A DNA stretch of 64,000 nucleotides from Oscillospiraceae bacterium (GTDB taxonomy: Bacteria; Bacillota; Clostridia; Oscillospirales; Oscillospiraceae): NCBI GenBank assembly GCA_017458335.1, contig JAFTFT010000036.1, positions 34,789 to 98,788 on the forward strand, given 5' to 3'. The translations under genes and the position numbers were made by a program. Below, in pieces: positions 42,527-64,000 of this stretch (the first letter of the stretch is position 1; each line of letters begins with the position of its first letter). The notes below the pieces were generated by a model. It saw nothing but the letters and a program-made list of their open reading frames with translations. It made no database searches and was not told the DNA's origin.

Positions 42527-42560
42527 CAGCAAAGTGCAGTTTCAAGGAGGAACCATCAAA

Positions 42561-43832: not shown

Positions 43833-43911
43833 CAGAGCATTCCGGTAACCAGGAGAAATCAGAGAAATGACTTCGCAGAATACCTGAGAAGCAGGAGTAT
43901 AAAACTGAGGC

Positions 43912-45417
43912 ATGTATAAACGCAGCAGCGAAAACTGGACCAAGCACCTGGACTTCATCCTTTTGGATGCAGTGTGCCTTGTGCTGTCCCTTTTCCTGGC
44001 GTATTATTCATATTACTATTATACATATCATAAACTGTTCGACCTGTTTGCAGATGATCTCTATCGGAATATCATGATCCTGCTGATCTTGATCGATGTG
44101 TTCGTCGCCGTACTTCTGAATACGATGCATCGTGTCATGCATCGAGGTTATTTCATCGAATTCAGCCAGACTGTCAAACAGGTGCTTGCGGTCTTTGGAG
44201 TAGAAATCCTGCTTCTCTTCGTGATGAAATGGTCCGACACTTACAGCCGTGTGATCCTTTCTCTGACGGCATTGTTCCACCTGATCCTCTCCTATTCTAC
44301 ACGGATTCTATGGAAGAAGGCGGTGCGTCTTTACAGCGGGCAGAGAGATAAACGCAGCATGATTCTTGTCTGTGCAGAGAGAGACGTGATAACTGTCCTT
44401 GCTAGAACCAACACGGAAGATGAGGCGGGGTTTGCCGGAGTGGTTCTTACAGATCGTGATGCAGCAGGGGAGAGCGTCTGCGGACTGCCGGTTGTTGCAG
44501 CACTCTCTGATGCAGCGCAGTATATCTGCCGCGAATGGGTAGATGAAGTCTTTTTCTACACAGATATGGCAGGGCTGGATGCGGTTCAGGAGATGGAAAC
44601 AGAGTCCGGGGATGAGCCGGAGACGGGGACAGTAGCTTCGCTGGTGGATGCATGCCGCCAGATGGCGGTTCCAATCCATATCCGGGTACCGCTCGGCGGA
44701 CACAAAGGCCGCAGCTTCGTTGAAAATGTAAATGGATTTAATGTGGTTACTGTGGCGGCAAATTATGCTTCTCCGCTGCAGCTGTTCCTGAAACGGCTGA
44801 TGGATCTTATAGGAGGTCTTGTCGGCAGCGTGTTTGCCCTTCTGATCATATTGATATTCGGACCGGTGATTCGCAGGAAATCTCCCGGACCGGTGCTGTT
44901 TATGCAGGAGCGAATCGGTCGAAACGGCAAGCACTTTAAAATCTATAAACTCCGCACGATGTATCTGGATGCCGAAGAGCAAAAGAAAGAGTTCCTTGAT
45001 CAGAACCGGGTAGAGGACGGCATGATGTTCAAGCTGGATTTTGACCCGCGTATCATAGGGAATGAAATTCTGCCGGACGGTACAAAGAAAGCTGGAATCG
45101 GAGAATGGCTGAGGGAGCACTCCCTGGATGAGTTTCCGCAGTTCTGGAATGTCCTGATCGGAAACATGAGTCTGGTAGGAACCAGACCGCCTACGGTGGA
45201 TGAATGGGAGAAGTATGCATACCACCATCGTGCCAGGCTTTCATTCAAACCTGGGATTACGGGGATGTGGCAGGTCAGCGGCCGCAGTAAGATTACGGAT
45301 TTTGAAGAGGTTGTGCGCCTGGACACGGAATACATCGAACACTGGGATCTGGGACTCGATCTGCGGATTTTGCTGAAAACCGTTATCGCTGTGCTTCACC
45401 GGGATGGAGCAATGTAA
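43912..45417 (+). CDS. Undecaprenyl-phosphate sugar-1-phosphate transferase (initiating enzyme)
   Basis: A 501-residue polyprenyl glycosylphosphotransferase that starts the repeat unit on undecaprenyl phosphate. Four to five N-terminal helices precede a soluble Rossmann-like domain, then the C-terminal bacterial sugar-transferase domain with a helix at about 290-315, KIYKLRTMYLDAEE, NMSLVGTRPPTVDEWEKY and KPGITGMWQVSGRSKIT. This is the long WbaP/CpsE/EpsL form. It sits between the aminotransferase and gmd. Confidence 0.93.
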   Translation: MYKRSSENWTKHLDFILLDAVCLVLSLFLAYYSYYYYTYHKLFDLFADDLYRNIMILLILIDVFVAVLLNTMHRVMHRGYFIEFSQTVKQVLAVFGVEILLLFVMKWSDTYSRVILSLTALFHLILSYSTRILWKKAVRLYSGQRDKRSMILVCAERDVITVLARTNTEDEAGFAGVVLTDRDAAGESVCGLPVVAALSDAAQYICREWVDEVFFYTDMAGLDAVQEMETESGDEPETGTVASLVDACRQMAVPIHIRVPLGGHKGRSFVENVNGFNVVTVAANYASPLQLFLKRLMDLIGGLVGSVFALLIILIFGPVIRRKSPGPVLFMQERIGRNGKHFKIYKLRTMYLDAEEQKKEFLDQNRVEDGMMFKLDFDPRIIGNEILPDGTKKAGIGEWLREHSLDEFPQFWNVLIGNMSLVGTRPPTVDEWEKYAYHHRARLSFKPGITGMWQVSGRSKITDFEEVVRLDTEYIEHWDLGLDLRILLKTVIAVLHRDGAM

Positions 45418-45450
45418 CAATATTCAGAATTTATCAGTAGGAGTATGATG

Positions 45451-46515: not shown

Positions 46516-46537
46516 AGAAAAGAGTCGGTATTGTATT

Positions 46538-47482
46538 ATGATGGAAAAAAACGCAAAAATCTATGTCGCCGGTCATCGGGGAATGGTCGGCAGCGCAATC
46601 AAAAGAGAACTGGAGCGGCAGGGATATACGAATCTTGTGACAAGAACCCACAAAGAACTGGATCTGATGCGGCAGGATCAGGTGGAAGAATTCTTCGCTC
46701 AGGAGAAACCGGACTATGTCGTGCTCGCTGCGGCTAAAGTGGGGGGCATTGTGGCAAACCAGAATGCGCTGGCCGACTTCATGTATGACAATATGATGTT
46801 GGAAATGAATGTGATTCATGCAGCATGGAAAAACAACTGCAAAAAGCTGCTGTTCCTCGGGTCCAGTTGTATCTATCCGAGGCTTGCTCCACAGCCGATG
46901 AAGGAGTCCTGCCTCCTGACCGGAGAGCTGGAAAAGACCAACGAGGCCTATGCGCTGGCGAAGATCAGCGGCCTTAAGTACTGTGAATTCCTGAACCGCC
47001 AGTATGGAACCGACTTCATCTCGGTGATGCCGACCAATCTCTATGGCCCGAATGATAATTACCACCCATTGCACAGTCATGTGCTGCCGGCCCTGATTCG
47101 CCGCTTCCATGAGGCGAAGGAATCCGACGCGGAATCTGTCACCTGCTGGGGAGACGGCACGCCGCTGCGAGAATTCCTGTATGTGGATGATCTGGCCAAT
47201 CTCTGTGTCTTCCTGCTGAACCATTACAGCGGGAATGAGACCGTTAATGCCGGAACGGGAAAAGAACTCACCATCAAGGAACTGACAGAACTGGTGGCCA
47301 GAGTGGTTGGATATTCCGGAAAGATCGAGTGGGATACCACGAAACCGAACGGGACACCGAGAAAGCTCCTGGATGTCAGTAAAGCGACTGCATTGGGATG
47401 GACCTACAAAACAGAGCTGGAGGACGGTATCCGCCTGGCTTACGAGGATTTCCTGCACAACCCGGTACGGGCGGAGAGATAA
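46538..47482 (+). CDS. fcl: GDP-L-fucose synthase
   Basis: This epimerase-reductase converts GDP-4-keto-6-deoxymannose to GDP-L-fucose. [19 protein letters not shown] at the N-terminus, [15 protein letters not shown], and [13 protein letters not shown] (YxxxK) are the WcaG/Fcl hallmarks. 314 residues. The start is chosen at 46538 (a second ATG follows); the longer in-frame ORF begins inside gmd. No clear ribosome site; coupling to gmd is possible. Confidence 0.95.
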
Positions 47483-47484
47483 GT

Positions 47485-48801
47485 ATGAATATCATTCTTC
47501 TCAGCGGAGGCTCCGGTAAAAGGCTTTGGCCGCTGTCCAATGACATCCGGTCCAAGCAGTTTATCAAAATTTTCAAAACACCGGATGGACAATATGAGTC
47601 CATGGTTCAGAGGGTCTATCGGCAGATCCTTGCAGTGGATCCGGAAGCGACGGTGACCATTGCTACCGGCAAATCACAGATTTCTGCGCTCCATAACCAG
47701 CTTGGGGAGCAGATTGATATCAGCGTGGAACCCTGCCGGAGGGATACTTTCCCGGCGATTGCACTGGCGGCAGCATATCTGCATGATGTGAAAGGTGTTC
47801 CGGAAGAAGAGGCCGCGGTTATCTGCCCGGTTGATCCGTATGTGAATGAGGACTACTTTGAGGCACTTCAGGAGCTCTGGACGCTGGCACAGCAGGGGAC
47901 AACGAATCTTACCCTCATGGGGATTGATCCCACATATCCCTCCGAAAAGTACGGCTATATTCTGCCGGTCGACCACAAACGCAGGTCCAAAGTGTCCGGA
48001 TTCAAGGAGAAACCGGATGCGGCAACGGCTCAGCAATACATTGAGGACGGAGGCCTGTGGAACGGCGGCGTATTTGCGTGCCGGCTTTGCTATGTCCTTG
48101 ATCGTGCCAGAGATTTGCTGGCCTACACAGATTACACAGACCTGTATGATCGTTATGACACGTTACCTAAAATATCTTTTGACTATGCAGTTGTAGAACA
48201 TGAGCCGGATATCGAGGTGCTGCGCTTCGGCGGACAGTGGAAAGATATCGGAACCTGGAATACCCTCAGCGAAGCGATGGAAGAAGCTTTGGTGGGGGAT
48301 GTTCGCCTGGATGGCACCTGTGCCAATGTCCATGCAATCAATGAACTCGGGGTCCCGATCTTGGCGATGGGGCTCAGAAATGCTGTGATCACAGCCTCTC
48401 CGGAAGGCATCCTTGTCACGGATAAGGCACAGAGCAGCTATATCAAGCCCTATGTGGACGCCATCAACCAGCAGGTGATGTTTGCGGAGAAAAGCTGGGG
48501 CTCCTACCTCGTCCTGGACGTGGAAGATAGCAGCATGACCGTCAAGGTGACACTGAATCCCGGGCACCGGATGAATTACCACAGCCACGATCATCGGGAT
48601 GAGGTCTGGACCGTGATCAGCGGAACCGGACGGACAATTGTGGACGGTATGGAACAGCCGGTGCGGGCCGGCGATGTGATCACGATGGCGGCCGGCTGCA
48701 GACATACCGTAATCGCCGAGACAAAGCTGCAGATGATCGAAGTACAGCTGGGCAGGGATATTTCGGCTGCGGACAAGCATAAATATGAGCTCGATGAATA
48801 G
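47485..48801 (+). CDS. manC: Mannose-1-phosphate guanylyltransferase with C-terminal cupin
   Basis: This enzyme makes GDP-mannose from mannose-1-P and GTP. The N-terminal pyrophosphorylase has ILLSGGSGKRLWPLSNDIR and KQFIKIF, then GFKEKPD; the C-terminal type II mannose-phosphate-isomerase-like cupin has KSWGSYLVLDV and NYHSHDHRDEVW (metal-binding His). In the first motif K and ND replace the more common T and RE. GGAGAG precedes the ATG at 47485, 2 bp after fcl. Confidence 0.94.
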   Translation: MNIILLSGGSGKRLWPLSNDIRSKQFIKIFKTPDGQYESMVQRVYRQILAVDPEATVTIATGKSQISALHNQLGEQIDISVEPCRRDTFPAIALAAAYLHDVKGVPEEEAAVICPVDPYVNEDYFEALQELWTLAQQGTTNLTLMGIDPTYPSEKYGYILPVDHKRRSKVSGFKEKPDAATAQQYIEDGGLWNGGVFACRLCYVLDRARDLLAYTDYTDLYDRYDTLPKISFDYAVVEHEPDIEVLRFGGQWKDIGTWNTLSEAMEEALVGDVRLDGTCANVHAINELGVPILAMGLRNAVITASPEGILVTDKAQSSYIKPYVDAINQQVMFAEKSWGSYLVLDVEDSSMTVKVTLNPGHRMNYHSHDHRDEVWTVISGTGRTIVDGMEQPVRAGDVITMAAGCRHTVIAETKLQMIEVQLGRDISAADKHKYELDE

Positions 48802-49774
48802 ACCTTTCCTGCTCAAACCGGCGGCAAAAGATTATCTTTGGGGCGGCAGCAGACTGAATGACGACTTCGGGAAAGCAATCCCGCTTTCCCCGCTGGCGGA
48901 AACCTGGGAATGCAGTACGCACCCGGACGGTCAGAGTATGGTTACAGAGACGGGAGAGCCTTTGGGTACGTTGCTGTCGCATTGCCCCGGCTATCTCGGA
49001 AGTCATGCACTGAGACTTGCCGGGGGAAAAGCGGAGCTTCCCATTCTGATCAAGCTGATTGATGCGAAACAGGATCTTTCCATACAGGTGCATCCCGATG
49101 ACGACTATGCGCTGGAGCACGAAAACAGCCGAGGGAAGACGGAGATGTGGTATATTCTGGCGGCGAAGCGAAACGCTGAACTGATCTACGGATTCCGGCA
49201 GGAGCTGAGCAGGGAACAGCTGGCCCGAGTACTGGATGAAAAAAGAGTGGAATCTGTTCTGAACCATGTTCCGGTCCGCCAGAACGATGTTTTTTTCGTC
49301 GAAGCGGGCATCGTTCATGCGATCGGAGCAGGAGTCCTTTTGGCGGAGATCCAGGAAAGCAGTAATGTGACCTACCGACTCTATGATTATGAAAGAACAG
49401 ACAAAGCCGGAAGAAAAAGAAACCTGCATATCCAGAAAGCGCTTGATGTGGCGAAGTTAACGGCTTCTGTTTCCCCACGTCAGCCTATGCGGGTGCTGAA
49501 GTATCGAAATGGCTGTGCGGAAGAACTGCTGGGCCGATGCAAATACTTCCAGGTTGGGCGGATTCTCCTGAATACGGAAATCCAACGAAATTTTGCCGAG
49601 TATCAGACAGACGGCAACAGCTTTCATGTTTTGCTCTGTATTGAAGGCTGCGGCGTACTGTTTGGAGAGCATGTCATGATCCCGTTTTTTAAAGGGGACT
49701 GTATATTTGTTCCGGCGGAATCAATTCCGTTGAAACTTCATGGTAAAGCGCAGTTGCTGAATATCAGCTGCTGA
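48785..49774 (+). CDS. manA: Mannose-6-phosphate isomerase, class I
   Basis: This zinc enzyme interconverts fructose-6-P and mannose-6-P and feeds the GDP-mannose branch. SIQVHPDDDYALEHE (Zn ligands Gln/His), GKTEMWYIL and HAIGAGVLLAEIQESSN are characteristic. 329 residues, or 326 if the ATG at 48794 is used. It overlaps manC by 8-17 bp. A phosphomannomutase to link the two is not found in the window. Confidence 0.94.
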   Translation: MSSMNRPFLLKPAAKDYLWGGSRLNDDFGKAIPLSPLAETWECSTHPDGQSMVTETGEPLGTLLSHCPGYLGSHALRLAGGKAELPILIKLIDAKQDLSIQVHPDDDYALEHENSRGKTEMWYILAAKRNAELIYGFRQELSREQLARVLDEKRVESVLNHVPVRQNDVFFVEAGIVHAIGAGVLLAEIQESSNVTYRLYDYERTDKAGRKRNLHIQKALDVAKLTASVSPRQPMRVLKYRNGCAEELLGRCKYFQVGRILLNTEIQRNFAEYQTDGNSFHVLLCIEGCGVLFGEHVMIPFFKGDCIFVPAESIPLKLHGKAQLLNISC

Positions 49775-53895: not shown

Positions 53896-54068
53896 ATCTA
53901 TTGCAAGGAACAATACGAATTCAATGTGATGCATTGTTTGTCACCACAAACTTGCCGATACTGAATAATCAATATCGCTGTAAAAAATCTTATAAATATG
54001 AGCATGAAGACTGTGCTATGTACAATGATGCACAGATGACACACGGATGTTGCGGGAAGTGTATATGA
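53892..54068 (+). CDS. Cysteine-rich 58-residue ORF between two glycosyltransferase genes
   Basis: The 58-codon ORF runs from an ATG that overlaps the previous gene's stop (ATGA) to a TGA that overlaps the next gene's ATG (ATGA at 54065-54068). Six Cys stand at residues 12, 30, 41, 53, 54 and 57, with HGCCGKC at the C-terminus, as in metal-binding small proteins. No signal peptide or membrane helix; no ribosome site, so it depends on coupling. I recognise no family. It might also be chance, filling the gap at a composition break. Confidence 0.5.
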   Translation: MNLLQGTIRIQCDALFVTTNLPILNNQYRCKKSYKYEHEDCAMYNDAQMTHGCCGKCI

Positions 54069-55225
54069 AGAAAATGATCAGAATAATGTATGTTCATCAT
54101 GGAAGAAGTAGTGGAGGTGCAGCTAGAAGCCTTGCCTTTCTGATTGATAAACTCGACAAAGAAAAATATGATCCATATGTGATTTGTCATCTTGACTTTG
54201 AAAAGAATAGACAACTATTTAGCTCTGTAGGAGCTCATGTAATCCACGGGAAGTATTTGGGGGGGTGGCATGGCAGTACAGTTGCCCCGATCAATAAAAG
54301 TACATTGAAGTTTAATGTAGTTCATCTGCTACCAACCTATTTCGGAATAAAGTCACTTGTAAGAAAGATTCACCCAGATATTATCCATTTAAATAGCACA
54401 TGTCTCTGTTTTGCAGCGAGATCGATTAGAAATTCGTTTCCGACCATTCCAATAGTCTGCCATGTGAGGGAACCTTTATTAGATGGTTTCTGGGGGGATA
54501 TTCTGCGAAAAAACTGTGAAGTAGCAGTGGATAGATTTATTGCAATTGAGCAATTTGATGCAGATTCTTTGCATACCTCTAAAAAAGTCGATATCATTTA
54601 TAATTTCGTGGATTTTGATATCTATAATGATCAAGTGAAATCAGATTGCTTGCGGAAAGAATTAAATCTGGATAATAATCACAAGATTCTTCTTTATCTG
54701 GCGAGAGTATGCCCATCTAATGGTGCACTGGAACTAGCGACCGCGATCATACCTTTCCTGCAACAGAGGAAAGACATCCATTTATGTATTGTTGGAGTCC
54801 AGCCGGAAGACCATTCAAATTATCTGCATAAGTTGCAATTGCTGAACACACAAAACAGTAATCTTCACTTAATTTGTTTTAGAAATGATGTACCACAATT
54901 AATTGCTTCTTCTGATCTAATGGTAGTACCATTTCAGACTCCTCATTTTGCAAGAAGCATTATTGAAGCAGCTGCTATGGGGGTGCCTACAATTGCGTCT
55001 GATATAGAAGGGCCTAGAGAACTCATTATACATAATGAAACAGGTTATCTGATTGATCCTGCAACCTTCAGTGGATTTGAAGCATACTGTAAAAATCTGC
55101 TTGACGAAGCAGAAAATTATAATAGAATATCTGAAAATGCGATCAAATTCGCTCATAAAAATTTTGACGCGAGGATTAATTCTAGAAGGACAATGGAGAT
55201 TTATCAGGAATTATTAGATCATTGA
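54065..55225 (+). CDS. Family 4 glycosyltransferase
   Basis: A 386-residue GT-B-fold enzyme: IMYVHHGRSSGGAARSLAFL at the N-terminus and ARSIIEAAAMGVPTIASDIEGP (donor site with Glu) plus GYLIDPATF at the C-terminus. The start at 54065 overlaps the preceding small ORF; an in-frame ATG at 54047 lies further upstream. From here on the DNA is markedly AT-richer than before. The IS630 remnant follows. Confidence 0.9.
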   Translation: MKKMIRIMYVHHGRSSGGAARSLAFLIDKLDKEKYDPYVICHLDFEKNRQLFSSVGAHVIHGKYLGGWHGSTVAPINKSTLKFNVVHLLPTYFGIKSLVRKIHPDIIHLNSTCLCFAARSIRNSFPTIPIVCHVREPLLDGFWGDILRKNCEVAVDRFIAIEQFDADSLHTSKKVDIIYNFVDFDIYNDQVKSDCLRKELNLDNNHKILLYLARVCPSNGALELATAIIPFLQQRKDIHLCIVGVQPEDHSNYLHKLQLLNTQNSNLHLICFRNDVPQLIASSDLMVVPFQTPHFARSIIEAAAMGVPTIASDIEGPRELIIHNETGYLIDPATFSGFEAYCKNLLDEAENYNRISENAIKFAHKNFDARINSRRTMEIYQELLDH

Positions 55226-55261: not shown

Positions 55262-56406
55262 TGAAATTTAGAAATATAATCAGTCACACTGTTGGAAGGT
55301 CGGATGAGAGATAAGCCATGTTCTCGCGTCTACGGTCTTGAACTGCCACTTGATCTTAGAGTATTTACCGTTGTGTTGACATTCTCAGGCATTCAGTTGA
55401 GTCCGGAGTTCTTCAATCGTTTTAATACGACGTGGAAGACATTGACGAGTCATTCAATTTCTGCAATATCCAGCCAGATGCTGTGCTCTGGCGTATAGTG
55501 AATTCCCAAGTATCGCAATAATCTCCGAGCCTCTTCAGGATGGAATCTCCTACAAAGGGAAGCAGGCTTATGAGTGTTCAGATTATCCATTACCAGAATA
55601 ATCTTTTCTGCTTCTGTGAACATGACGTCGCAAAGGTACTTGATCTGCTCTGCCCAATCTAACGCAGTACGGTGCTCCAGAACAGATACGTGGCGAATTC
55701 CTTCCATGGGGGCTGTAAAGACAAAGATACTGCAGGTAACGTTCCTCACATACTCAGAGTCAATCTTAACTGTATCGCTTGGACGCATCGGCAAGGGCGT
55801 GCGTACTTCGCCAGGCAACTGGCTGGGTTTCTCATCCATACATATAAGTGGATGGTCAGGGTTACGAGGCATCTCGTAAATATCTAGAACATCCTCCATG
55901 CATGCTATGAATTCTGGATCTTCTCTGTTCGGGATACACCAGCATTCCGAGAGATGAGGTCGAATTCCATTTTTTTTAGAGCACGGCGGATAGCTTCTCG
56001 ACTTACCGGAGTATCAAGCTCTACCTTTGCTGTGTCTTCCAACAGCCTGAGTGTCCATCTGCTATGACCGTCCGGAACAGGTCCGCAGGCAATCTCAATG
56101 ATCTTTGCTTCTGCACGCCCGTCAACTTTGCGCCTGGCACTATCTGAATTGACATTTCTTTCCAGAACAAGCAATTTCTCCAAACCATCTGTGCAAAATG
56201 ATTTATCCGTATTGCTGACAGTTGCGGCACACGAACCTGGTACCGTCGCGCACTCTTCATAGTCATAGGGTTGTCTGTGCGCGAGATCGAGAAGGAGCAA
56301 TATTTGGCAACGGCATCTGATTGTTTGAGGGGGCTTTACATTGCGGATCAGTTTTTTAATCATTGAACATCTTCATCGGATAAATGCACGGTATTTTTTC
56401 AGTGTC
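55255..56406 (-). mobile_element. IS630-family insertion sequence remnant
   Basis: The element contains a decayed IS630-family transposase. Candidate end repeats are GACACAATGAAA (55255-55266) and its imperfect complement TTTCAGTGTC (56397-56406). Boundaries are approximate; a flanking TA target duplication could not be fixed by eye. It separates the GT4 gene from the flippase gene. Confidence 0.5.
55280..56363 (-). pseudogene. IS630-family transposase, frameshifted and degraded
   Basis: On the minus strand, residues from ATG at 56363 give the N-terminal helix-turn-helix part (DLAHRQPYDYEECATVPG, KVDGRAEAKIIEIACG, RWTLRLLEDTAKVELDTP). At the A8 run (CTAAAAAAAATGG, 55970-55977) the frame must shift -1 to read KKNGIRPHLSECWCIPNRED and continue into the DDE part (ICMDEKPSQL, ILVMDNLNTHKPASL, HYTPEHSIWLDIAEIE). 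After EIE a small deletion and shift remove the next residues, TRQCLPRRIKTIEELRTQLNA follows in another frame, and a TGA stands where Trp is expected. The tail runs to 55280. The last two defects argue for a pseudogene. Confidence 0.85.
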
Positions 56407-56511: not shown

Positions 56512-58065
56512 ATGAAAATTGAACGGACAAAGAATACATTACGTAATGCAAAATGGGGAGTAGTGCAAAGGTTTGTCCATATCCTGTTCCCTTTTGCTGT
56601 CAGAACGATTCTTATTCATACATTAAATGCTGAATATGCAGGGATCAGCAGCTTGTTCACATCGATCCTTTCTATTCTCAGCTTGACTGAGCTCGGTTTT
56701 TCCGATGCGATTGTCTACAGCATGTACAAACCCGTTGCGGAAGATGACAAAGAAAAGATCCAGGCACTCCTCTGTGTCTACAGAAAAGCTTACAGAGTGA
56801 TCGGTACTATCATTTTGTCATTGGGATTATCATTGCTGCCTTTCTTACGCCATATGATTCACGGGACTGTTCCCCCTGATACGAACCTTTACATCTTATA
56901 CTGTATTTATTTGTTCAATACGGTAATCAGTTATTTCCTCTTTGCATATAAATCGAGCCTGCTATCTGCTTATCAGAGAGTTGATGTGATCAGTAAAAAT
57001 ACACTAATCGCAAATATCTTTTTATACACTACTCAATGTATGGTTCTGCTTATATTTCAGAACTATTATGTTTATGCGGTTATCATTCCGCTATCGACTG
57101 TACTTCAGAATCTTCTGACAAACCATGCGGTCACCAAATTGTTTCCAGGATACTTACCGAGGGGAAGCATAAGACCTGAGGAAAAAGCGGAACTGAAGAA
57201 GAATGTGACAGGCCTGATGATCTGGAAGATTGGTGGAGCTACTCGCAATACATTGGACAGTATTGTCATTTCTTCTTTTATTGGACTTGTCTCTGTGGCG
57301 ATGTATAACAATTATTTTTACATCATAAACGGGGTAAACTCTTTCCTGGCGGTCCTGACTACATCAATGCTGGCAGGTGTTGGAAATAAAATAGCTACGG
57401 AAACGCCGGAAAAAAACTATGAAGATTTCAAGAAATTCCATTTTCTTTATATGTGGATTGCAAGCTGGTGTACAGTGTGCATGATGTGTATGTATCAACC
57501 ATTCATGAAGATATGGATGGGAGAGGATCTGTTGTTTCCAAACAGCATTATGTTCCTGTTTTGCTATTATTTTATTATGATGAAACAAGGTGACATCAAT
57601 TCGGTGTACTATCAGGCAGCTGGACTCTGGTGGCATGGGAAATTGCGTTCTATTGTGGAAGCTGTTCTTAATCTGACTTTAAATATTATTCTGGGTAAGA
57701 TGCTCGGTGTGACAGGAATCATTCTTGCGACAATTATCTCCTATACCTGCGTTTACTTTTATGGTTCAAAATTTGTATTCACAGAGTATTTTAAGAATGG
57801 AAAGCTTGGTTCATTCTATATAGATAATTTGTTTTACCTTCTCTGTACTGGTATTGTAGGCTATGGATCTTTTGGCCTGCTAAAGTGGCTGGTGGGAGAT
57901 CGGCAAAACAGCTTGTTTGTATTGGCTATAAGTCTGTTGACATGTATTACTCTTCCTAATTTGTGTTTTGGCATCATATATAGCTTACGGAAGCAAAATC
58001 GGATTTATATGAAACAGTTCGCCGGAGAGCTTAATAAAAGGATCATATTATCAAGGAGCAAATAG
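56512..58065 (+). CDS. Polysaccharide flippase (Wzx/MATE-MOP family)
   Basis: A 517-residue protein with about twelve to fourteen helices that would flip lipid-linked repeat units across the membrane. The N-terminal WGVVQRFVHILFPFAVRTIL and SSLFTSILSILSLTELGFSDAI segment is typical of MOP-family oligosaccharide flippases. Inner helices include a Lys/Glu-rich loop after residue 220. Its start is 148 bp after the transposase remnant; weak ribosome site. A downstream GT2 begins 2 bp after the stop. Confidence 0.88.
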   Translation: MKIERTKNTLRNAKWGVVQRFVHILFPFAVRTILIHTLNAEYAGISSLFTSILSILSLTELGFSDAIVYSMYKPVAEDDKEKIQALLCVYRKAYRVIGTIILSLGLSLLPFLRHMIHGTVPPDTNLYILYCIYLFNTVISYFLFAYKSSLLSAYQRVDVISKNTLIANIFLYTTQCMVLLIFQNYYVYAVIIPLSTVLQNLLTNHAVTKLFPGYLPRGSIRPEEKAELKKNVTGLMIWKIGGATRNTLDSIVISSFIGLVSVAMYNNYFYIINGVNSFLAVLTTSMLAGVGNKIATETPEKNYEDFKKFHFLYMWIASWCTVCMMCMYQPFMKIWMGEDLLFPNSIMFLFCYYFIMMKQGDINSVYYQAAGLWWHGKLRSIVEAVLNLTLNIILGKMLGVTGIILATIISYTCVYFYGSKFVFTEYFKNGKLGSFYIDNLFYLLCTGIVGYGSFGLLKWLVGDRQNSLFVLAISLLTCITLPNLCFGIIYSLRKQNRIYMKQFAGELNKRIILSRSK

Positions 58066-58067
58066 GT

Positions 58068-59018
58068 TTGAAAATCTGTGCAATAATTGTTACATACAAC
58101 AGAAAAGAGCTTGTAAAGGAATGCTTATCTGCAGTCCTGAACCAGACATATCCGATTCATGATATTCTGCTCTTTGATAATGGCAGTACTGATGGGACAC
58201 ATGACTTTTTAGATGGTATTGGTCTGCTTTGTGATAGCCGTATTCATTATACTTACGTTGAAAATAACATAGGGGCTGCAGGTGCATATTCTGAAGCATT
58301 CAATATTGCGAAAAGTATCGAGTGCGACTGGATCTGGGAAATGGACGATGATACTATCCCAAACCCAGATTGTTTAGAGAGATTATTGGGGGCACTTGAT
58401 GTCTTATCTGAGGAAAAAAGCATTTCCTTTTTGGCAAGTACAGTTTTTGGGGAAAATGGCGAATTCATGAATGTACCTGCTATAGATGCCAGACCTTCAG
58501 AAAATGGGTATCCCTCTTGGTACAAATACTTAAATAGAGGGATTGTCAAAATTGGGTGTGCCACATTTATCTCATTGCTGTTCAATAAAAAAGCAGTAGA
58601 TCAGATTGGGATACCGATTAGAGAATTCTCTATGTGGGGTTTTGATACCGAATATACCAGACGCTTAACTAAGTATTTTGGAGATGCATATTTTGTAGGC
58701 GACAGCGTTGCAATTCATAAGCGAAAAAATGCGATAGCCCTTAATATTGAAAAAGAAACAGAGCCCGACCGCATTAAGTTGTATAGAACTTTATATGAAA
58801 GCTCGTTAATCAATTCGTATCTATATGCATGGAATCGTTCCAATTCTAAACTATATCTATATGCGATGTGTAAAATTTTAAAATCTTTGAAGTATCTAAG
58901 AAAGGAAAATGGAGAAATAATCTTCAGGGAACACATGATAGGTGCATTAAAAGCGTTGAAAGATAGAAAAATGTTTGAAGTAATGGTTGATGCTGAAATA
59001 GAGCGTAAAAATGAATAG
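58068..59018 (+). CDS. Family 2 glycosyltransferase
   Basis: A 316-residue GT2 of the rhamnosyl/galactofuranosyl-transferase-like group: ICAIIVTYNRKELVKECLSA, LLFDNGSTDGTHDF, and WIWEMDDDTIPNPDCLERLL (DDD). SMWGFDTEYTRRLTKYF is the catalytic W..D.E element typical of GlfT2-like enzymes. TTG start at 58068 with AAGGAG 9 bp upstream, 2 bp after the flippase stop. Confidence 0.9.
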   Translation: MKICAIIVTYNRKELVKECLSAVLNQTYPIHDILLFDNGSTDGTHDFLDGIGLLCDSRIHYTYVENNIGAAGAYSEAFNIAKSIECDWIWEMDDDTIPNPDCLERLLGALDVLSEEKSISFLASTVFGENGEFMNVPAIDARPSENGYPSWYKYLNRGIVKIGCATFISLLFNKKAVDQIGIPIREFSMWGFDTEYTRRLTKYFGDAYFVGDSVAIHKRKNAIALNIEKETEPDRIKLYRTLYESSLINSYLYAWNRSNSKLYLYAMCKILKSLKYLRKENGEIIFREHMIGALKALKDRKMFEVMVDAEIERKNE

Positions 59019-59093: not shown

Positions 59094-59876
59094 ATGAAGG
59101 TTGTAATTCTTGCAGGAGGATTTGGTACTCGAATTTCTGAAGAGTCCGAGTTCAAACCTAAACCTATGATTGAAATCGGCGGAATGCCTATATTATGGCA
59201 TATCATGAAGATATATGCGCATCATGGGTTCAATGAGTTTATAATATGTGCCGGCTATAAGCAACATATTATCAAGGAATGGTTTGCGGATTATTTTCTC
59301 CACACATCTGACATTACGTTTGACTACACATCAGGTAATAATGAAATAATAGTCCACAATAAAAAAGTGGAACCTTGGAAAGTTACGATTGTGGATACCG
59401 GACTGCATACGCAGACTGGCGGACGTGTGAAGAGAATTAGAGATTATGTTGGTAATGATTCCTTCATGCTTACTTACGGAGATGCAGTGGGTGATATTAA
59501 TATACCGCAGCTCCTGCGCTTTCATGAACAGCATGGAAAGATAGGCACAATGTCTATGTATAACTTCGGACAGAATAAAGGCGTAGTTGAAGTGGGGAAA
59601 GAAGGAATTATTGAAGCTTTCCGTGAAAAGTCAGATATTGACGGAGATCTTATTAATATTGGCTTCATGGTCTTTAAACCTCAGCTGTTTGATTATATTG
59701 AGGGAGATACAACGATATTCGAGAAGGGGCCACTTGCGGAGTTAGTCAGAGATAAAGAACTTGTTGGTTATACACACAGAGGCTATTGGCAGTGCATGGA
59801 CACAATGAGAGAAAAACAGCAACTTGAGAAACTATGGGATACAGGTAAGGCTCCTTGGAAACTTTGGGAGGATTAA
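59094..59876 (+). CDS. rfbF: Glucose-1-phosphate cytidylyltransferase
   Basis: This enzyme makes CDP-D-glucose, the first step of the CDP-3,6-dideoxyhexose route. Motifs: VVILAGGFGTRISEES, KPKPMIEIGGMPILWHIM, LTYGDAVGDIN, and FWQCMDT-type HRGYWQCMDTMREK. 260 residues, the normal length. Followed directly by rfbG (stop then ATG). Ribosome site GGGGGA is rather far (about 14 bp). Confidence 0.96.
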   Translation: MKVVILAGGFGTRISEESEFKPKPMIEIGGMPILWHIMKIYAHHGFNEFIICAGYKQHIIKEWFADYFLHTSDITFDYTSGNNEIIVHNKKVEPWKVTIVDTGLHTQTGGRVKRIRDYVGNDSFMLTYGDAVGDINIPQLLRFHEQHGKIGTMSMYNFGQNKGVVEVGKEGIIEAFREKSDIDGDLINIGFMVFKPQLFDYIEGDTTIFEKGPLAELVRDKELVGYTHRGYWQCMDTMREKQQLEKLWDTGKAPWKLWED

Positions 59877-60938
59877 ATGACGTTCGATCTGTCTTTCTAT
59901 AAAGGGAAAAAGATACTACTCACTGGGCATACTGGGTTTAAGGGGTCTTGGATGTCAGTTGTGCTTGTGAATGCGGGAGCAGAGGTTATAGGATATTCAT
60001 CTTGCTCTAAATCTGAGACACGACTCTTTGATTTGTGCAAGATCAAGAACCAAATCACTCATATCAAAGGGGATGTTCGTGATTTGGATCATCTCCTTTC
60101 GGCGTTCAATGAGTACAAACCGGAAATCGTGATTCATATGGCTGCTCAACCGATTGTACGTGACAGTTATCAGGATCCGGTTGGAACATATTCTACGAAT
60201 GTTATGGGCACAGTGAACGTACTTGAGGCTGTTCGGCATACTCCGTCTGTAAAGTCTTTTTTGAATGTGACAACCGATAAGGTATATGAGAACAAAGAGT
60301 GGGAATGGGGCTATCGGGAGAGTGAGCCGCTGGACGGTTATGATCCGTATTCAAATTCAAAATCCTGCTCGGAGCTTGTTACGCATTCATATAAAAACTC
60401 TTTCTTTGCAGATGGTCATACTGCAATTTCCACAGCTCGTGCCGGCAACGTGATCGGCGGTGGTGATTTTGCGAAGGACCGAATCATTCCTGATTGCGTC
60501 AGGGCAGCGCTAAGAAATGAGAACCTTGTAGTACGGAACCCGTATTCGACTCGGCCATATCAGCATGTTTTGGAACCTGTTTGCGCTTATCTTATGATTG
60601 CGGCAAAACAGTATGAGGATAGCAAATACGCAGGCTATTATAATGTTGGCCCGGATGATAGAGACTGCTTTGTAACCGGAAAGCTTGTAGATACTTTTGT
60701 AAAGCACTGGGGAGAAGAGCTGAAGTGGATTGATACGTATGATGGTGGTCCGCATGAAGCTAACTTCCTAAAGCTCGATTGTTCTAAACTAAAGACAACC
60801 TTTGGCTGGCAGCCAAGATGGGATCTTGAAACAGCAATTGCGAAAGTAGTTGAGTGGACGAAATGCTGGAGTGACGGCGGAGACGTTCGGGCCTGTATGA
60901 ATAAACAAATTGAAGAATTTCTTGGAGGGGACAGATGA
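59877..60938 (+). CDS. rfbG: CDP-glucose 4,6-dehydratase
   Basis: NAD-dependent SDR that turns CDP-glucose into CDP-4-keto-6-deoxyglucose. ILLTGHTGFKGSWMSVVL (dinucleotide loop), VTTDKVYENKEW and YDPYSNSKSCSELVTHSY (YxxxK) identify it, together with GNVIGGGDFAKDRIIPD. 353 residues. GGGAGG lies 6 bp upstream. Its stop overlaps the next ATG by 4 bp. Confidence 0.96.
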   Translation: MTFDLSFYKGKKILLTGHTGFKGSWMSVVLVNAGAEVIGYSSCSKSETRLFDLCKIKNQITHIKGDVRDLDHLLSAFNEYKPEIVIHMAAQPIVRDSYQDPVGTYSTNVMGTVNVLEAVRHTPSVKSFLNVTTDKVYENKEWEWGYRESEPLDGYDPYSNSKSCSELVTHSYKNSFFADGHTAISTARAGNVIGGGDFAKDRIIPDCVRAALRNENLVVRNPYSTRPYQHVLEPVCAYLMIAAKQYEDSKYAGYYNVGPDDRDCFVTGKLVDTFVKHWGEELKWIDTYDGGPHEANFLKLDCSKLKTTFGWQPRWDLETAIAKVVEWTKCWSDGGDVRACMNKQIEEFLGGDR

Positions 60939-62287
60939 TGTCTACTTGGAGTAACGAAGCAGAAGCCCGAGAACAGATAAAGGAGATTGTTGCAGAATAC
61001 TATCATGACTTTAAAGAAAAGAAAGACGCTTTCAAGCCGGGGGATCGCATCAGCTACGCTTCCCGTGTCTTCGATGAGAAGGAGATGCAGGCGCTGACAG
61101 ATGCGATGCTGGACTTTTGGTTGACTACAGGCAGACTTTCCGATCAGTTTGAAAAAGAGTTCGCTTCCTGGATCGGAGTAAAATATGCTCATTTGGTTAA
61201 CAGCGGTTCTTCTGCGAACTTGATCGCTTTTATGGCGCTGACTGCCCCGGAACTCGGAGAGAGACAGATTCGACCCGGGGATGAAGTTATTACAGTAGCT
61301 TGCGGATTCCCGACAACGGTCACTCCGATTTTAAATTACGGAGCAGTTCCTGTTTTTGTGGATGTAACGGTTCCGCTATATAATATTGATGTGACCAGAC
61401 TGGAAGATGCACTGAGTGAGAAAACGAAAGCTGTCATGATTGCCCATACGTTGGGTAATCCGTTTGATTTGAAGGCGGTCAAAGCATTCTGCAATAAGCA
61501 TAATCTATGGCTTGTGGAAGATAATTGTGACGCCCTTGGTACAAAGTATACCATTGATGGTGTAACAAAGTTCACAGGGACTTGGGGCGACATCGGCACC
61601 AGCAGTTTTTATCCACCTCATCATATGACAATGGGGGAAGGTGGCTGCGTTTACACAAACAATCCCTTGCTTCACAGGCTGATTCTCTCTTTTCGGGACT
61701 GGGGACGTGACTGCATTTGTCCTTCTGGACGAGATAATTTCTGTGGTCATCGATTTGATGGCCAGCACGGTGAATTGCCTGCCGGCTATGATCACAAGTA
61801 TGTGTATAGTCATTTTGGATACAATCTGAAAGTTACGGACATGCAGGCGGCTATAGGATGCGAACAGTTAAAAAAATTCCCATCTTTTATTGAACGTAGA
61901 AGACACAACTGGGCTCGACTTCACCAGGCTCTGGAATGTGTCAATGATAACCTGATCCTTCCGGAACCTGCTGAGAATAGTGAACCCTCCTGGTTCGGCT
62001 TCCTGATTTCGGTAAGACCGGAAAGTGGCCTGGATAGAAATAGGATCACCAGATTTATCGAGGATCATAATGTTCAAACAAGGCTTCTGTTTTCCGGTAA
62101 TCTGATTCGACACCCATGCTTTAATCAGATTAGAGAGACTGATAAGTATCGAGTAGCCGGAAGTCTTGAATGTACTGATTTTATCATGAACAATACGTTC
62201 TGGATTGGCGTATATCCGGGGATGACCGATGAAATGATCGATTACATGGCTGAAACTATCATTGAAGCAGTGAACATGCAGCTATGA
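60935..62287 (+). CDS. rfbH: CDP-4-keto-6-deoxyglucose 3-dehydrase (E1, PMP and Fe-S enzyme)
   Basis: This is E1 of the 3-deoxygenation step, a pyridoxamine-phosphate [2Fe-2S] enzyme. Instead of the aminotransferase Lys it has FYPPHHMTMGEGG with His (229-230), the hallmark of RfbH. Fe-S cysteines are visible in EDNCDALG and CICPSGRDNFC. SGSSANLIAFMAL binds the cofactor phosphate. 450 residues. GGAGG is 6 bp before the ATG. No E3 reductase (AscD/DdhD) gene is seen nearby. Confidence 0.96.
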   Translation: MMSTWSNEAEAREQIKEIVAEYYHDFKEKKDAFKPGDRISYASRVFDEKEMQALTDAMLDFWLTTGRLSDQFEKEFASWIGVKYAHLVNSGSSANLIAFMALTAPELGERQIRPGDEVITVACGFPTTVTPILNYGAVPVFVDVTVPLYNIDVTRLEDALSEKTKAVMIAHTLGNPFDLKAVKAFCNKHNLWLVEDNCDALGTKYTIDGVTKFTGTWGDIGTSSFYPPHHMTMGEGGCVYTNNPLLHRLILSFRDWGRDCICPSGRDNFCGHRFDGQHGELPAGYDHKYVYSHFGYNLKVTDMQAAIGCEQLKKFPSFIERRRHNWARLHQALECVNDNLILPEPAENSEPSWFGFLISVRPESGLDRNRITRFIEDHNVQTRLLFSGNLIRHPCFNQIRETDKYRVAGSLECTDFIMNNTFWIGVYPGMTDEMIDYMAETIIEAVNMQL

Positions 62288-63201
62288 AGAAAGCGATTGT
62301 TACTGGCGCGAATGGATTTGTAGGAACTGCTGTTTGTAAAGAGCTGTCGACACAGGGAGTAGAAGTTATTGCAGTTATCCGGCGTCCTGATGAGGTTTTT
62401 GGAAAGATTGCAGAGAATAATGGCATCAGGATAGTCTATAGTGACCTCACAAATTACAGGAATCTTGCGGAAGTAATTTCAGATCGTGATGCCGAAGCTC
62501 TGTTCCATTTCGCTTGGACAGGTAGTGCCGGCACACTTCGCGGTGATGCGGATGTTCAGCTGAGTAATGTTAAGTATACCTGCGATACTGTAAAAACATG
62601 TGCAGATCTGGGATGTAAGCGGTTTGTTTTTGCCTCCAGTATTATGGAATATGAAATTGAAGCGACAATGGCTACCGATGCAACTCCTGGAATTAATACA
62701 CTATATAGTACTGCTAAAGTTGCTGCAGATTATATGGCGAGAACAATTGCCGGCAGCTTGGAAATTGATTATATTCGCGCGGTTATTTCTAATATTTATG
62801 GTCCGGGTGAAATGAGTCAACGCCTTGTTAACACGAGTCTGAGAAAAATGTTGAATGGAGAATACTGCGCTTTTTCTGCCGGAGAACAAATGTATGATTT
62901 CATATATATAACTGACGCGGCAAAATCTTTCGCAGCAATTGGGGAAAAAGGGAAAAATAACAAGACTTATTATATCGGCAGTCAGGAACCGAAACCTCTC
63001 AAAGAATTCATATTAACAATGAGAGACCGTGTGGATCCAAATATCATGATTGGTCTTGGCGAGATTCCGTTTAATGGAGTGTCCCTAAGCTATAAAGAGT
63101 TCGATATTTACGCTGTGAAAGATGATACAGGGTTCGTGCCGCAGATCAGTTTCAAAGAAGGTATTGATAATACAATTGCATGGTTGCGGGAGGTTGGGTG
63201 A
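62284..63201 (+). CDS. NAD-dependent epimerase/dehydratase-family sugar reductase (AscF/RfbJ-like)
   Basis: A 305-residue extended SDR: KKAIVTGANGFVGTAVC, FASSIMEYE, and LYSTAKVAADYMAR (YxxxK). In the CDP-3,6-dideoxyhexose pathway an SDR of this kind reduces the C4 keto group (abequose, paratose or ascarylose). It overlaps rfbH by 4 bp and is followed by an RmlC-like epimerase, which fits AscF plus AscE. Other nucleotide-sugar reductases are possible. Confidence 0.88.
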   Translation: MKKAIVTGANGFVGTAVCKELSTQGVEVIAVIRRPDEVFGKIAENNGIRIVYSDLTNYRNLAEVISDRDAEALFHFAWTGSAGTLRGDADVQLSNVKYTCDTVKTCADLGCKRFVFASSIMEYEIEATMATDATPGINTLYSTAKVAADYMARTIAGSLEIDYIRAVISNIYGPGEMSQRLVNTSLRKMLNGEYCAFSAGEQMYDFIYITDAAKSFAAIGEKGKNNKTYYIGSQEPKPLKEFILTMRDRVDPNIMIGLGEIPFNGVSLSYKEFDIYAVKDDTGFVPQISFKEGIDNTIAWLREVG

Positions 63202-63764
63202 TGTCAGGGTTTAGTTTTCAAGAATTGGACCTGAAAGGTGCGTACTTGATCAGCAACTTCTATATTGGAGATAACCGTGGGGGATTTACAAAAATCTTTG
63301 AAAAAGATCTATATAAAGAAGTGGGAATTGACTTTCAACTGAATGAGACTTTTGTTTCTCGCTCTATGAGAAATGTTATTCGAGGCCTTCATTTTCAGAC
63401 CAATAATCCTCAAGCGAAACTGATTTCGGTTGTGGCAGGGGCGGTTTGGGACGTCATGATTGATTTAAGACCAAATAGCCCGACGTTTAAGCAATGGATT
63501 GCGTATGAACTAAGTGCAGAAAATCATTTGTGCTTTTATATTCCTCGTGGATTCGCACATGGTTTTGCAAGTCTTGAGGATAACACGGTTATGTTATATC
63601 AGTGCGACGGTAAGTACGATAGGGAAACAGATACGGGAATTAGATTTGATGATCCCGAGATCGGGATTGAATGGCCGGGTGACAAAAGTGTGGCTATACA
63701 TAGCGAAAGAGATTTGGCACTTGGCAGCTTGAAAGAGTATATGATGCATCCAATGGAGCTATAG
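63201..63764 (+). CDS. RmlC-like nucleotide-sugar 5-epimerase (AscE/RfbC-like)
   Basis: A 187-residue cupin epimerase: NRGGFTKIFEKDLYKEVG, NVIRGLHFQTNNPQAKLI (catalytic His), VWDVMIDLRPNSPTFKQW, and YIPRGFAHGFASLEDN. It matches dTDP-4-keto-rhamnose 3,5-epimerase, but its location after rfbFGH suggests the CDP-3,6-dideoxy-4-hexulose 5-epimerase (AscE). The ATG at 63201 overlaps the previous stop by one base (TGATG). Confidence 0.9.
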   Translation: MSGFSFQELDLKGAYLISNFYIGDNRGGFTKIFEKDLYKEVGIDFQLNETFVSRSMRNVIRGLHFQTNNPQAKLISVVAGAVWDVMIDLRPNSPTFKQWIAYELSAENHLCFYIPRGFAHGFASLEDNTVMLYQCDGKYDRETDTGIRFDDPEIGIEWPGDKSVAIHSERDLALGSLKEYMMHPMEL

Positions 63765-63796
63765 TATCGTTCGGAATAATGAATATTCAGCTGCAG

Positions 63797-63884
63797 ATTG
63801 AACGCCTGCACCACACAAGCTGAACACCTACTCCGGCATAATTGAACGGTAGCACCACTGGGATTGAACACCAGGATATTTGCA
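63797..63884. repeat. Four 22-bp-periodic iterons, IS21-end-like
   Basis: ATTGAAC (or GCTGAAC) occurs at 63797, 63819, 63841 and 63863, exactly 22 bp apart, with partial conservation of the next bases (CCTGCACCAC, CCTACTCCGG, GGTAGCACCAC). They lie 32 bp after the last gene. Such multiple short terminal repeats occur at the ends of IS21-family elements, so an element may begin here. Confidence 0.7.
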
Positions 63885-64000
63885 GTAGCATATTGGTGTG
63901 TGCTCAGGCACGACATCAAAATAAGAGTTATCATGACTAACATTCATAATTAACAGCACAGAGCCCATGAGAAAGCGTTACCGTCTTGACGCTTAAAGGA

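What the first reader, a model, noticed from the sequence alone, without database searches (positions are those of the whole stretch)
59094..63764. Complete CDP-3,6-dideoxyhexose pathway, probably L-ascarylose, in a Gram-positive glycan locus
Five overlapping genes encode RfbF, RfbG, RfbH (His in place of the PLP Lys, Fe-S cysteines visible), an SDR with YxxxK, and an RmlC-like epimerase. CDP-abequose or paratose needs no 5-epimerase; CDP-L-ascarylose does (AscE and AscF in Yersinia pseudotuberculosis O:V). The epimerase-plus-reductase order therefore points to ascarylose. 3,6-dideoxyhexoses are best known from Gram-negative O-antigens. The E3 reductase is not in the window.
Basis: partly seen in the sequence, partly recalled or inferred. 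Interest (0 to 1): 0.72.

Follow-up and report, generated by a model that had tools for sequence, protein, structure and literature searches.

The report
E3-less CDP-ascarylose-type operon in gut Clostridia
A probably gut-dwelling Clostridia bacterium carries a five-gene operon that most likely makes an activated form of the rare sugar L-ascarylose (or a very close relative), apparently without the dedicated electron-donating enzyme known from the textbook pathway.

Summary
The five genes are real, intact and coupled at the stated coordinates. RfbF, RfbG and RfbH pass curated cut-offs; RfbH keeps its active-site His and four Fe-S cysteines. The epimerase passes the rmlC cut-off too, but it lies in a supported clade of RfbH-linked epimerases, has other residues at two probable nucleobase-contact positions, is the only member of its family found in the draft genome, and no RmlD reaches cut-off. 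RfbH-reductase-epimerase is contiguous in 33 of 80 named relatives, 23 of them Lachnospiraceae or Oscillospiraceae. A sister cassette without RfbH has the core gene content of the characterised CDP-6-deoxy-L-altrose pathway; RfbH added to it should give a CDP-3,6-dideoxy-L-hexose, most simply L-ascarylose. 'Complete' is not supported: no full-length match to Salmonella RfbI (E3) was found in 43 RfbH-bearing genomes searched, against 8 of 10 gammaproteobacterial ones. Electrons may therefore come from a general ferredoxin/flavodoxin system, as reported for SpnQ. The reductase's lineage seems to differ from that in the analogous gammaproteobacterial cluster, though tests are mixed. Product stereochemistry is inference: no authenticated AscE/AscF sequence was available, and no chemistry was tested.

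The parts
59094..59876 (+). RfbF: glucose-1-phosphate cytidylyltransferase (CTP + Glc-1-P to CDP-glucose)
   Evidence: TIGR02623 359.4 bits, cut-off 300.25
59877..60938 (+). RfbG: CDP-glucose 4,6-dehydratase
   Evidence: TIGR02622 452.5 bits, cut-off 278.45
60935..62287 (+). RfbH/E1: PMP- and [2Fe-2S]-dependent CDP-4-keto-6-deoxyglucose 3-dehydrase; Cys198, 260, 262, 270; His229-His230
   Evidence: NF011936 724.1 bits; PDB 3bcx 514.7 bits; ligands conserved in 81 of 81
62284..63201 (+). SDR, putative C4 reductase (AscF-like role, own lineage), Y141xxxK145
   Evidence: PF01370 132.4 bits; alignment A1; tree
63201..63764 (+). RmlC-fold sugar C5 epimerase, probably CDP-type (AscE-like role); His64, Lys73, Tyr133, Asp171; K31/E49/F51 where dTDP-type enzymes have E/Q/N
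   Evidence: PF00908 194.7 bits; tree; residue counts; AU tests
58068..59018 (+). GT2 glycosyltransferase just upstream; candidate user of the sugar (inferred from position only)
   Evidence: PF00535 84.9 bits
56512..58065 (+). weakly Wzx/flippase-like protein of the glycan locus
   Evidence: NF041503 23.8 bits, far under its cut-off of 300; no Pfam match
43912..45417 (+). initiating polyprenyl glycosylphosphotransferase of the glycan locus
   Evidence: TIGR03025 326.8 bits, cut-off 295.55

Best explanation
The operon makes CDP-L-ascarylose (CDP-3,6-dideoxy-L-arabino-hexose), or less likely its C4 epimer, for a surface glycan. Steps: RfbF makes CDP-glucose; RfbG makes CDP-4-keto-6-deoxyglucose; RfbH/E1 removes the 3-OH by PMP and [2Fe-2S] chemistry; the RmlC-fold enzyme inverts C5 (C3 no longer bears an OH); the SDR reduces the 4-keto group. 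Electrons for E1 come not from a dedicated E3 (AscD/RfbI) but from a general ferredoxin or flavodoxin system, as reported for SpnQ. Shown here: gene identity, intactness, conserved ligands, an RfbH-linked epimerase subfamily apart from dTDP RmlC, conserved linkage, no RfbI-like E3 in the assemblies searched. Inferred: CDP specificity of the epimerase, order of the last two steps, C4 stereochemistry, electron donor, use in the neighbouring glycan.
For: Family cut-offs; E1 ligands. Epimerase in a clade (SH-aLRT 99) of 34 rows: 29 labelled RfbH-linked, 5 with no intact RfbH or RfbG within about 4 kb, none with RfbG but no RfbH. Its place in the RfbH-less group is rejected (AU p 1.7e-5) and with dTDP-type RmlC too (p 0.015). 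Position 31: Lys in 75 of 75 non-dTDP-type epimerases, Glu in 5 of 6 dTDP-type; position 51: Phe in 72 of 75, Asn in 6 of 6. By residue spacing these match Thr33 and Lys54, which bind the guanine in DdahB/MlghB (PMC7949155 passages). RfbH-SDR-epimerase contiguous in 33 of 80 named loci; one in-frame SDR-epimerase fusion. RfbF-RfbG-SDR-epimerase runs in 21 of 80, one of which (L129) also has RfbH, match the core of the characterised CDP-6-deoxy-L-altrose pathway (PMC12369002); ascarylose is 3-deoxy-6-deoxy-L-altrose (recalled stereochemistry). E3: full-length match in 0 of 43 RfbH-bearing genomes against 8 of 10 gammaproteobacterial ones.
Against: The epimerase passes the curated rmlC cut-off (174.8 against 155.75). 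No authenticated AscE/AscF sequence was compared. In a gammaproteobacterial cluster of order RfbH-epimerase-SDR (L188) the SDR falls in the RfbS group; AU rejects window SDR + L188 SDR (p 0.018) but not window SDR with the whole RfbS group (p 0.127). SDRs of RfbH-positive and RfbH-negative cassettes intermix on the tree, so the SDR does not tell which substrate it uses. E3 is next to RfbH in only 1 of 10 gammaproteobacterial neighbourhoods and has no full-length match in 2 of 10 of those genomes, so its lack is not peculiar to Clostridia. The genome is 83.7% complete and the contig ends 236 bases after the operon.
Confidence: 0.66

Rival explanations
1. The SDR and epimerase act mainly on CDP-4-keto-6-deoxyglucose itself and the operon makes CDP-6-deoxy-L-altrose (or a mixture), RfbH being idle for want of E3 or serving another branch.
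For: Sister cassettes without RfbH use homologous SDR and epimerase and match the core of the CDP-6-deoxy-L-altrose pathway (PMC12369002); SDRs of both kinds intermix; no E3 found.
Against: Window epimerase is excluded from the RfbH-less group (AU p 1.7e-5) and differs at positions 53 (Ser in 41 of 43 RfbH-linked, Thr in 25 of 25 RfbH-less) and 139 (Tyr in 39 of 43, one gap; Phe in 24 of 25). RfbH lies inside the coupled run between RfbG and SDR, with all ligands kept in 81 of 81.
Confidence: 0.14
2. The product is the C4 epimer, CDP-3,6-dideoxy-L-lyxo-hexose, a sugar I do not recall from nature.
For: C5 inversion followed by reduction allows two C4 outcomes (textbook stereochemistry, recalled); the SDR appears to be of another lineage than in the gammaproteobacterial RfbH-epimerase-SDR cluster, so its facial selectivity is unknown.
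Against: Ascarylose is known from Y. pseudotuberculosis O5a (PMC8533242 passages); the corresponding step in the RfbH-less pathway of C. jejuni gives the L-altro configuration, which matches ascarylose at C4 (PMC12369002); that HS41.18 is akin to the window's SDR was not tested.
Confidence: 0.09
3. The epimerase is the RmlC of a dTDP-L-rhamnose pathway and merely sits next to an abequose/paratose-type operon.
For: Passes TIGR01221 cut-off; its best solved relatives are annotated as dTDP RmlC.
Against: Only PF00908 gene found in the genome and no RmlD over cut-off, though about 16% of the genome may be missing; tree and AU; K31/E49/F51; linkage conserved in 33 of 80.
Confidence: 0.04
4. The pathway is cryptic: with no E3 the E1 step does not run and the operon is decaying.
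For: No E3 found.
Against: All five genes intact and coupled; Fe-S ligands kept in 81 of 81 RfbH, which would be expected to erode without use; the same gene run recurs in many genera.
Confidence: 0.07

Closest known systems
CDP-L-ascarylose pathway of Yersinia pseudotuberculosis O5a (E1/E3, AscE, AscF; gene names recalled)
   Same: RfbF, RfbG, E1 (514.7 bits to 3bcx), an RmlC-fold epimerase and an SDR
   Different: No RfbI/AscD-type E3 found in the draft genome; host with Clostridia relatives; order SDR-epimerase; epimerase and SDR could not be compared with AscE/AscF themselves
CDP-6-deoxy-L-altrose pathway of Campylobacter jejuni HS:41 (PMC12369002)
   Same: CDP-glucose route with a CDP 3,5-epimerase and a C4 reductase; RfbH-less sister cassettes have this core gene content
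   Different: No E1; has a pyranose/furanose mutase; the window's operon has RfbH in the run; sequences not compared
Yersiniose-type branched CDP-3,6-dideoxyhexose pathways (YerE-type thiamine enzyme)
   Same: RfbF-G-H core; 12 of 27 other RfbH loci of the order hold an acetolactate-synthase-family, YerE-like gene
   Different: None in the window's operon; SDR of another clade
SpnQ of spinosyn biosynthesis
   Same: E1-like 3-dehydrase said to use ferredoxin or flavodoxin pairs instead of E3 (PMC8987622 passages)
   Different: dTDP substrate, antibiotic pathway
dTDP-L-rhamnose RmlC
   Same: Family, fold and catalytic residues
   Different: Probable nucleobase-contact positions, phylogeny and gene context

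Membership tests
CDP-3,6-dideoxyhexose pathway (RfbF-RfbG-RfbH core) | All three enzymes over curated cut-offs, intact | tested here: met
CDP-3,6-dideoxyhexose pathway (RfbF-RfbG-RfbH core) | E1 with His for Lys and four [2Fe-2S] cysteines | tested here: met
CDP-3,6-dideoxyhexose pathway (RfbF-RfbG-RfbH core) | E3 reductase (N-terminal Fer2, then FAD and NAD domains) | tested here: not met
   the three Fer2 + NAD_binding_1 reductases found have Fer2 at the C-terminus; RfbI matches them at most 30% over the FAD/NAD part. Genome 83.7% complete, so absence is not proof
CDP-L-ascarylose pathway (AscE, AscF) | CDP-specific C5 epimerase of RmlC fold | tested here: inconclusive
   family, catalytic residues, RfbH linkage and non-dTDP residues met; CDP specificity not assayed
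CDP-L-ascarylose pathway (AscE, AscF) | Epimerase and SDR orthologous to AscE and AscF | not tested
   no authenticated AscE/AscF sequence was reached by any search
CDP-L-ascarylose pathway (AscE, AscF) | L-ascarylose in the glycan | not testable with these tools
   needs composition analysis
dTDP-L-rhamnose pathway | RmlC equivalog score | tested here: met
   174.8 against 155.75
dTDP-L-rhamnose pathway | Clusters with dTDP-type RmlC | tested here: not met
   AU p 0.015 against 5 such rows
dTDP-L-rhamnose pathway | RmlD in the genome | tested here: not met
   0 of 8 matches over cut-off in an 83.7%-complete genome
CDP-6-deoxy-L-altrose pathway | RmlC-fold epimerase + SDR on the RfbG product, no RfbH | tested here: not met
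   RfbH inside the run; epimerase outside the RfbH-less group

The most novel reading that the evidence does not exclude
Anaerobic Clostridia run an E3-independent lineage of E1: a Fe-S/PMP 3-dehydrase fed from the general ferredoxin or flavodoxin pool, in a modular CDP-6-deoxy-L-hexose system where one related epimerase-reductase module makes 6-deoxy-L-altrose without RfbH and L-ascarylose with it, so that gain or loss of a single gene switches the surface sugar between 3-hydroxy and 3-deoxy forms.
Probability: 0.45. Interest if true: 0.66.

Novelty: new variant of a known kind. Interest (0 to 1): 0.5.

Why it matters
I recall ascarylose only from Yersinia lipopolysaccharide and nematode ascarosides; the listings of ten full-text searches of open-licence papers showed no report of its route in Gram-positive bacteria. 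If right, ascarylose-type sugars are likely surface antigens of Lachnospiraceae and Oscillospiraceae. The E3-less E1s make an old biochemical question testable: whether E1 needs a dedicated reductase. The paired RfbH-plus and RfbH-minus cassettes offer a natural comparison of how one gene may switch a surface sugar.

Tried and rejected
dTDP-rhamnose reading: disfavoured by tree, residues and missing RmlD. Yersiniose or transketolase-type branched sugar: no such enzyme in the operon; SDR in another clade. Colitose: from CDP-glucose it would need an extra C2 inversion (recalled stereochemistry). Own-genome Fer2 reductases as E3: three proteins with Fer2 at the C-terminus; two sit beside genes that look FAD-dependent by their N-terminal sequence only (no NCBIfam family at 1e-40). 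Plasmid search with the SDR: 7 records, all under 32% identity. Paper searches without useful hits: no paper; nothing opened. PMC9095892 passages gave no nucleotide-contact residues. No structure prediction or fold search was run; rmlA and rmlB were not searched for in the genome.

Dropped rows and labels: for both trees I left out L092, L094, L101 and L139, taken as the same contigs as L056, L046, L059 and L052 (equal contig lengths); they stay in the counts over 80 loci. SDR rows under 240 or over 420 residues were left out, which removes the L087 fusion; that fusion is not in the epimerase tree either. AU tests left out 3 more epimerase rows (L114, L095, L156) and 6 SDR rows, for long branches or partial length; with L156 left in, the six dTDP-type rows are not one side of a branch. 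The dTDP label was given by best BLAST match to Salmonella RmlC, not by context; L156 has the mixed residues K/E/N. 'RfbH-linked' means RfbH within 4 kb, 'RfbH-less' means RfbG within 4.5 kb and no RfbH; 7 epimerases met neither (two of them, L105 and L127, have RfbG farther off; L083 has a broken RfbH piece nearby). The reading of positions 31, 51 and 53 rests on residue spacing to conserved arginines, not on superposition.
Full report
OBSERVATION. The window is G000 contig C23, bases 34789-98788 of a 98788-base contig, so the finding lies at a contig end. The genome is a 2.95-Mb draft in 44 contigs, 83.7% complete. Five same-strand ORFs abut or overlap by 1-4 bases. RfbF, RfbG and RfbH exceed curated cut-offs; the fifth exceeds the rmlC cut-off; the SDR reaches none of those shown. 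RfbH matches the E1 structure 3bcx at 514.7 bits over query residues 8-441. Four Fe-S cysteines and two histidines are present in 81 of 81 RfbH sequences compared, four duplicate loci having been dropped from 85.

HOST. One genome that one search puts in its family (G036) and three in its order (G136, G181, G328) have contigs of the same length as named records: uncultured Oscillospiraceae, Ruminiclostridium (twice) and Clostridia. A Clostridia host is therefore inferred.

CONTEXT. Upstream lie a GT2 glycosyltransferase (58068-59018), a weak Wzx-like match (56512-58065), a GT4 (54047-55225), an initiating sugar transferase and a probable GDP-L-fucose gene set. GC is 50-61% over the first 36 kb, 47-53% over the next 14 kb and 38-46% over the last 14 kb, which suggests but does not prove lateral acquisition.

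DISTRIBUTION. In the window's order 28 of 394 genomes, its own included, carry RfbH over cut-off. Among the other 27 neighbourhoods, four have the contiguous F-G-H-SDR-epimerase run (L046, L056, L059, L066), 12 hold an acetolactate-synthase-family, YerE-like gene and two a transketolase pair; several stretches are cut by contig ends, and some of the 12 genes lie kilobases from RfbH. A scan of genome contigs with the six cassette SDRs found 210 relatives and kept the best 80: 25 Lachnospiraceae, 24 Oscillospiraceae, 19 other Clostridia, 4 Treponema, 8 others. Of the 80, 40 have RfbH and an epimerase, 27 an epimerase with RfbF or RfbG but no RfbH on the stretch held, 13 neither pattern. RfbH-SDR-epimerase is contiguous in 33, the full five-gene run in 16, RfbF-RfbG-SDR-epimerase in 21, of which L129 also has RfbH. 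Isolates with RfbH at the locus include Faecalicatena contorta, Desulfosporosinus, Eubacterium callanderi and Clostridium CF012. In L087 SDR and epimerase are one 494-residue frame: a single draft case, which a sequencing slip could also give.

THE EPIMERASE. In a quick maximum-likelihood tree of 81 epimerases the window's lies in a clade with SH-aLRT 99 of 34 rows: 29 RfbH-linked, 5 with no intact RfbH or RfbG within about 4 kb. RfbH-less cassette epimerases form another clade (support 100; 27 rows: 24 RfbH-less, 2 unlabelled, 1 Treponema locus with both kinds). Further RfbH-linked rows, such as Desulfosporosinus, E. callanderi and L066, lie outside both, so RfbH-linked epimerases as a whole are not one clade. 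AU tests on 78 rows reject the window's epimerase with dTDP-type RmlC (p 0.015) and inside the RfbH-less group (p 1.7e-5). His64, Lys73, Tyr133 and Asp171 are kept. Three positions separate the 75 non-dTDP-type rows from the 6 dTDP-type: 31 (Lys 75 of 75; Glu 5 of 6), 49 (Glu or Asp 75 of 75; Gln 5 of 6), 51 (Phe 72 of 75; Asn 6 of 6). The solved RmlCs whose alignments I printed show the dTDP pattern. PMC7949155 (passages) says that in DdahB/MlghB the guanine bonds to Asn22, Thr33 and Lys54, and that Ser65 of S. suis RmlC, which bonds to the substrate's O6, is Ile56 there. Counting from the conserved arginines, Thr33 falls on window position 31, Lys54 on 51 and Ser65/Ile56 on 53; so 31 and 51 are probably nucleobase contacts. 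Position 53 is Ser in 41 of 43 RfbH-linked and Thr in 25 of 25 RfbH-less epimerases. The genome has one PF00908 gene and no RmlD over cut-off (0 of 8 matches).

THE REDUCTASE. In a tree of 113 SDRs, those of RfbH-plus and RfbH-less cassettes form one group (support 100, 88 rows), apart from RfbS-like SDRs and from all 6 SDRs beside thiamine enzymes and both beside transketolases. Within it the two kinds intermix. A cluster with the order RfbH-epimerase-SDR (L188, class of the genome of L135, which is titled gamma proteobacterium) has an epimerase with the same residues at 31, 49 and 51 but an SDR in the RfbS group. AU rejects window SDR with L188's SDR (p 0.018) but not with the whole RfbS group (p 0.127), so separate lineage is likely, not firm. 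I recall the order ascE-ascF from Yersinia but no call supplied those sequences.

E3. The query was Salmonella RfbI (N-terminal Fer2, then FAD and NAD domains). In the own genome it matches at most 30% over the FAD/NAD part and 38-42% over short Fer2 pieces, all in three reductases whose Fer2 is C-terminal. No match spanning both parts was found in the 27 other RfbH genomes of the order, in the 5 genomes with RfbH at the locus (of 9 records searched), or in the 10 such genomes (of 11): with the own genome, 0 of 43, one of them a Treponema. The positive control returned RfbI itself at 9.9e-228. Of 10 gammaproteobacterial genomes with RfbH over cut-off (10 of 369 drawn), 8 have a full-length match and 6 one of at least 38% identity; in only 1 of 10 is it next to RfbH. 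Thresholds were 1e-3 and 1e-6. Gammaproteobacteria carry other reductases of this build, so 6 of 10 is the safer figure. Many of the genomes are drafts.

MECHANISM. PMC8987622 (passages) states that E1 is reduced by E3 through Fe-S clusters, and that SpnQ uses ferredoxin/ferredoxin reductase or flavodoxin/flavodoxin reductase pairs instead. PMC12369002 (abstract, passages and part 1 of 2 of the results) shows that a cytidylyltransferase, 4,6-dehydratase, 3,5-epimerase and C4 reductase make CDP-6-deoxy-L-altrose in C. jejuni HS:41, followed by a mutase. The RfbH-less cassette has the four-gene core. RfbH between dehydratase and epimerase would remove the 3-OH: 3-deoxy-6-deoxy-L-altrose is L-ascarylose (stereochemistry recalled). 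PMC8533242 (passages) lists ascarylose in Y. pseudotuberculosis O5a and 6-deoxy-L-altrose in O5b and O11, the same pair of sugars.

VERDICT. The finding is real and mostly well read; 'complete' is the weak word. The main new points are the residue pattern that sets these epimerases apart, the paired RfbH-plus and RfbH-minus cassettes, and the absence of an RfbI-like E3. The listings, open-licence papers only, showed no report of this.

Noticed in passing
window 55450-56363, minus strand: IS630-like transposase remnant split over two ORFs (DDE_3 over cut-off, HTH_32 under it) between two glycan genes.
   Followed up: partly
window 42534-49774: PglE-like aminotransferase (nearest solved relative 1o61; the PglE name is recalled), initiating sugar transferase, Gmd (530 bits, over cut-off), Fcl-like (485 of 500 bits), GMP/PMI-like and PMI genes: a probable GDP-L-fucose set beside the CDP operon.
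   Followed up: partly
L114, L115, L117, L118, L121 and 16 other loci: RfbF-RfbG-SDR-epimerase runs without RfbH between them, matching the core of the CDP-6-deoxy-L-altrose pathway, in Clostridia, Erysipelotrichia, Paenibacillus, Treponema and one gammaproteobacterial MAG; one of the 21, L129, has RfbH further on.
   Followed up: partly
L087 7992-9476: In-frame fusion of the SDR and the epimerase in one record titled uncultured Clostridiales RUG055.
   Followed up: partly
L129 (Treponema MAG): Carries an SDR with an RfbH-less-type epimerase and, next to RfbH, a second epimerase akin to that of gammaproteobacterial L188.
   Followed up: no
L043, L060, L069, L071, L191: RfbH next to a split transketolase pair, perhaps a branched-sugar route, in the window's order, Desulfobaculum, Methylovirgula and a gammaproteobacterial genome.
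   Followed up: no
window 63765-64000: 236 bases after the operon without a convincing gene; the assembly breaks there, possibly at a repeat (not tested).
   Followed up: no
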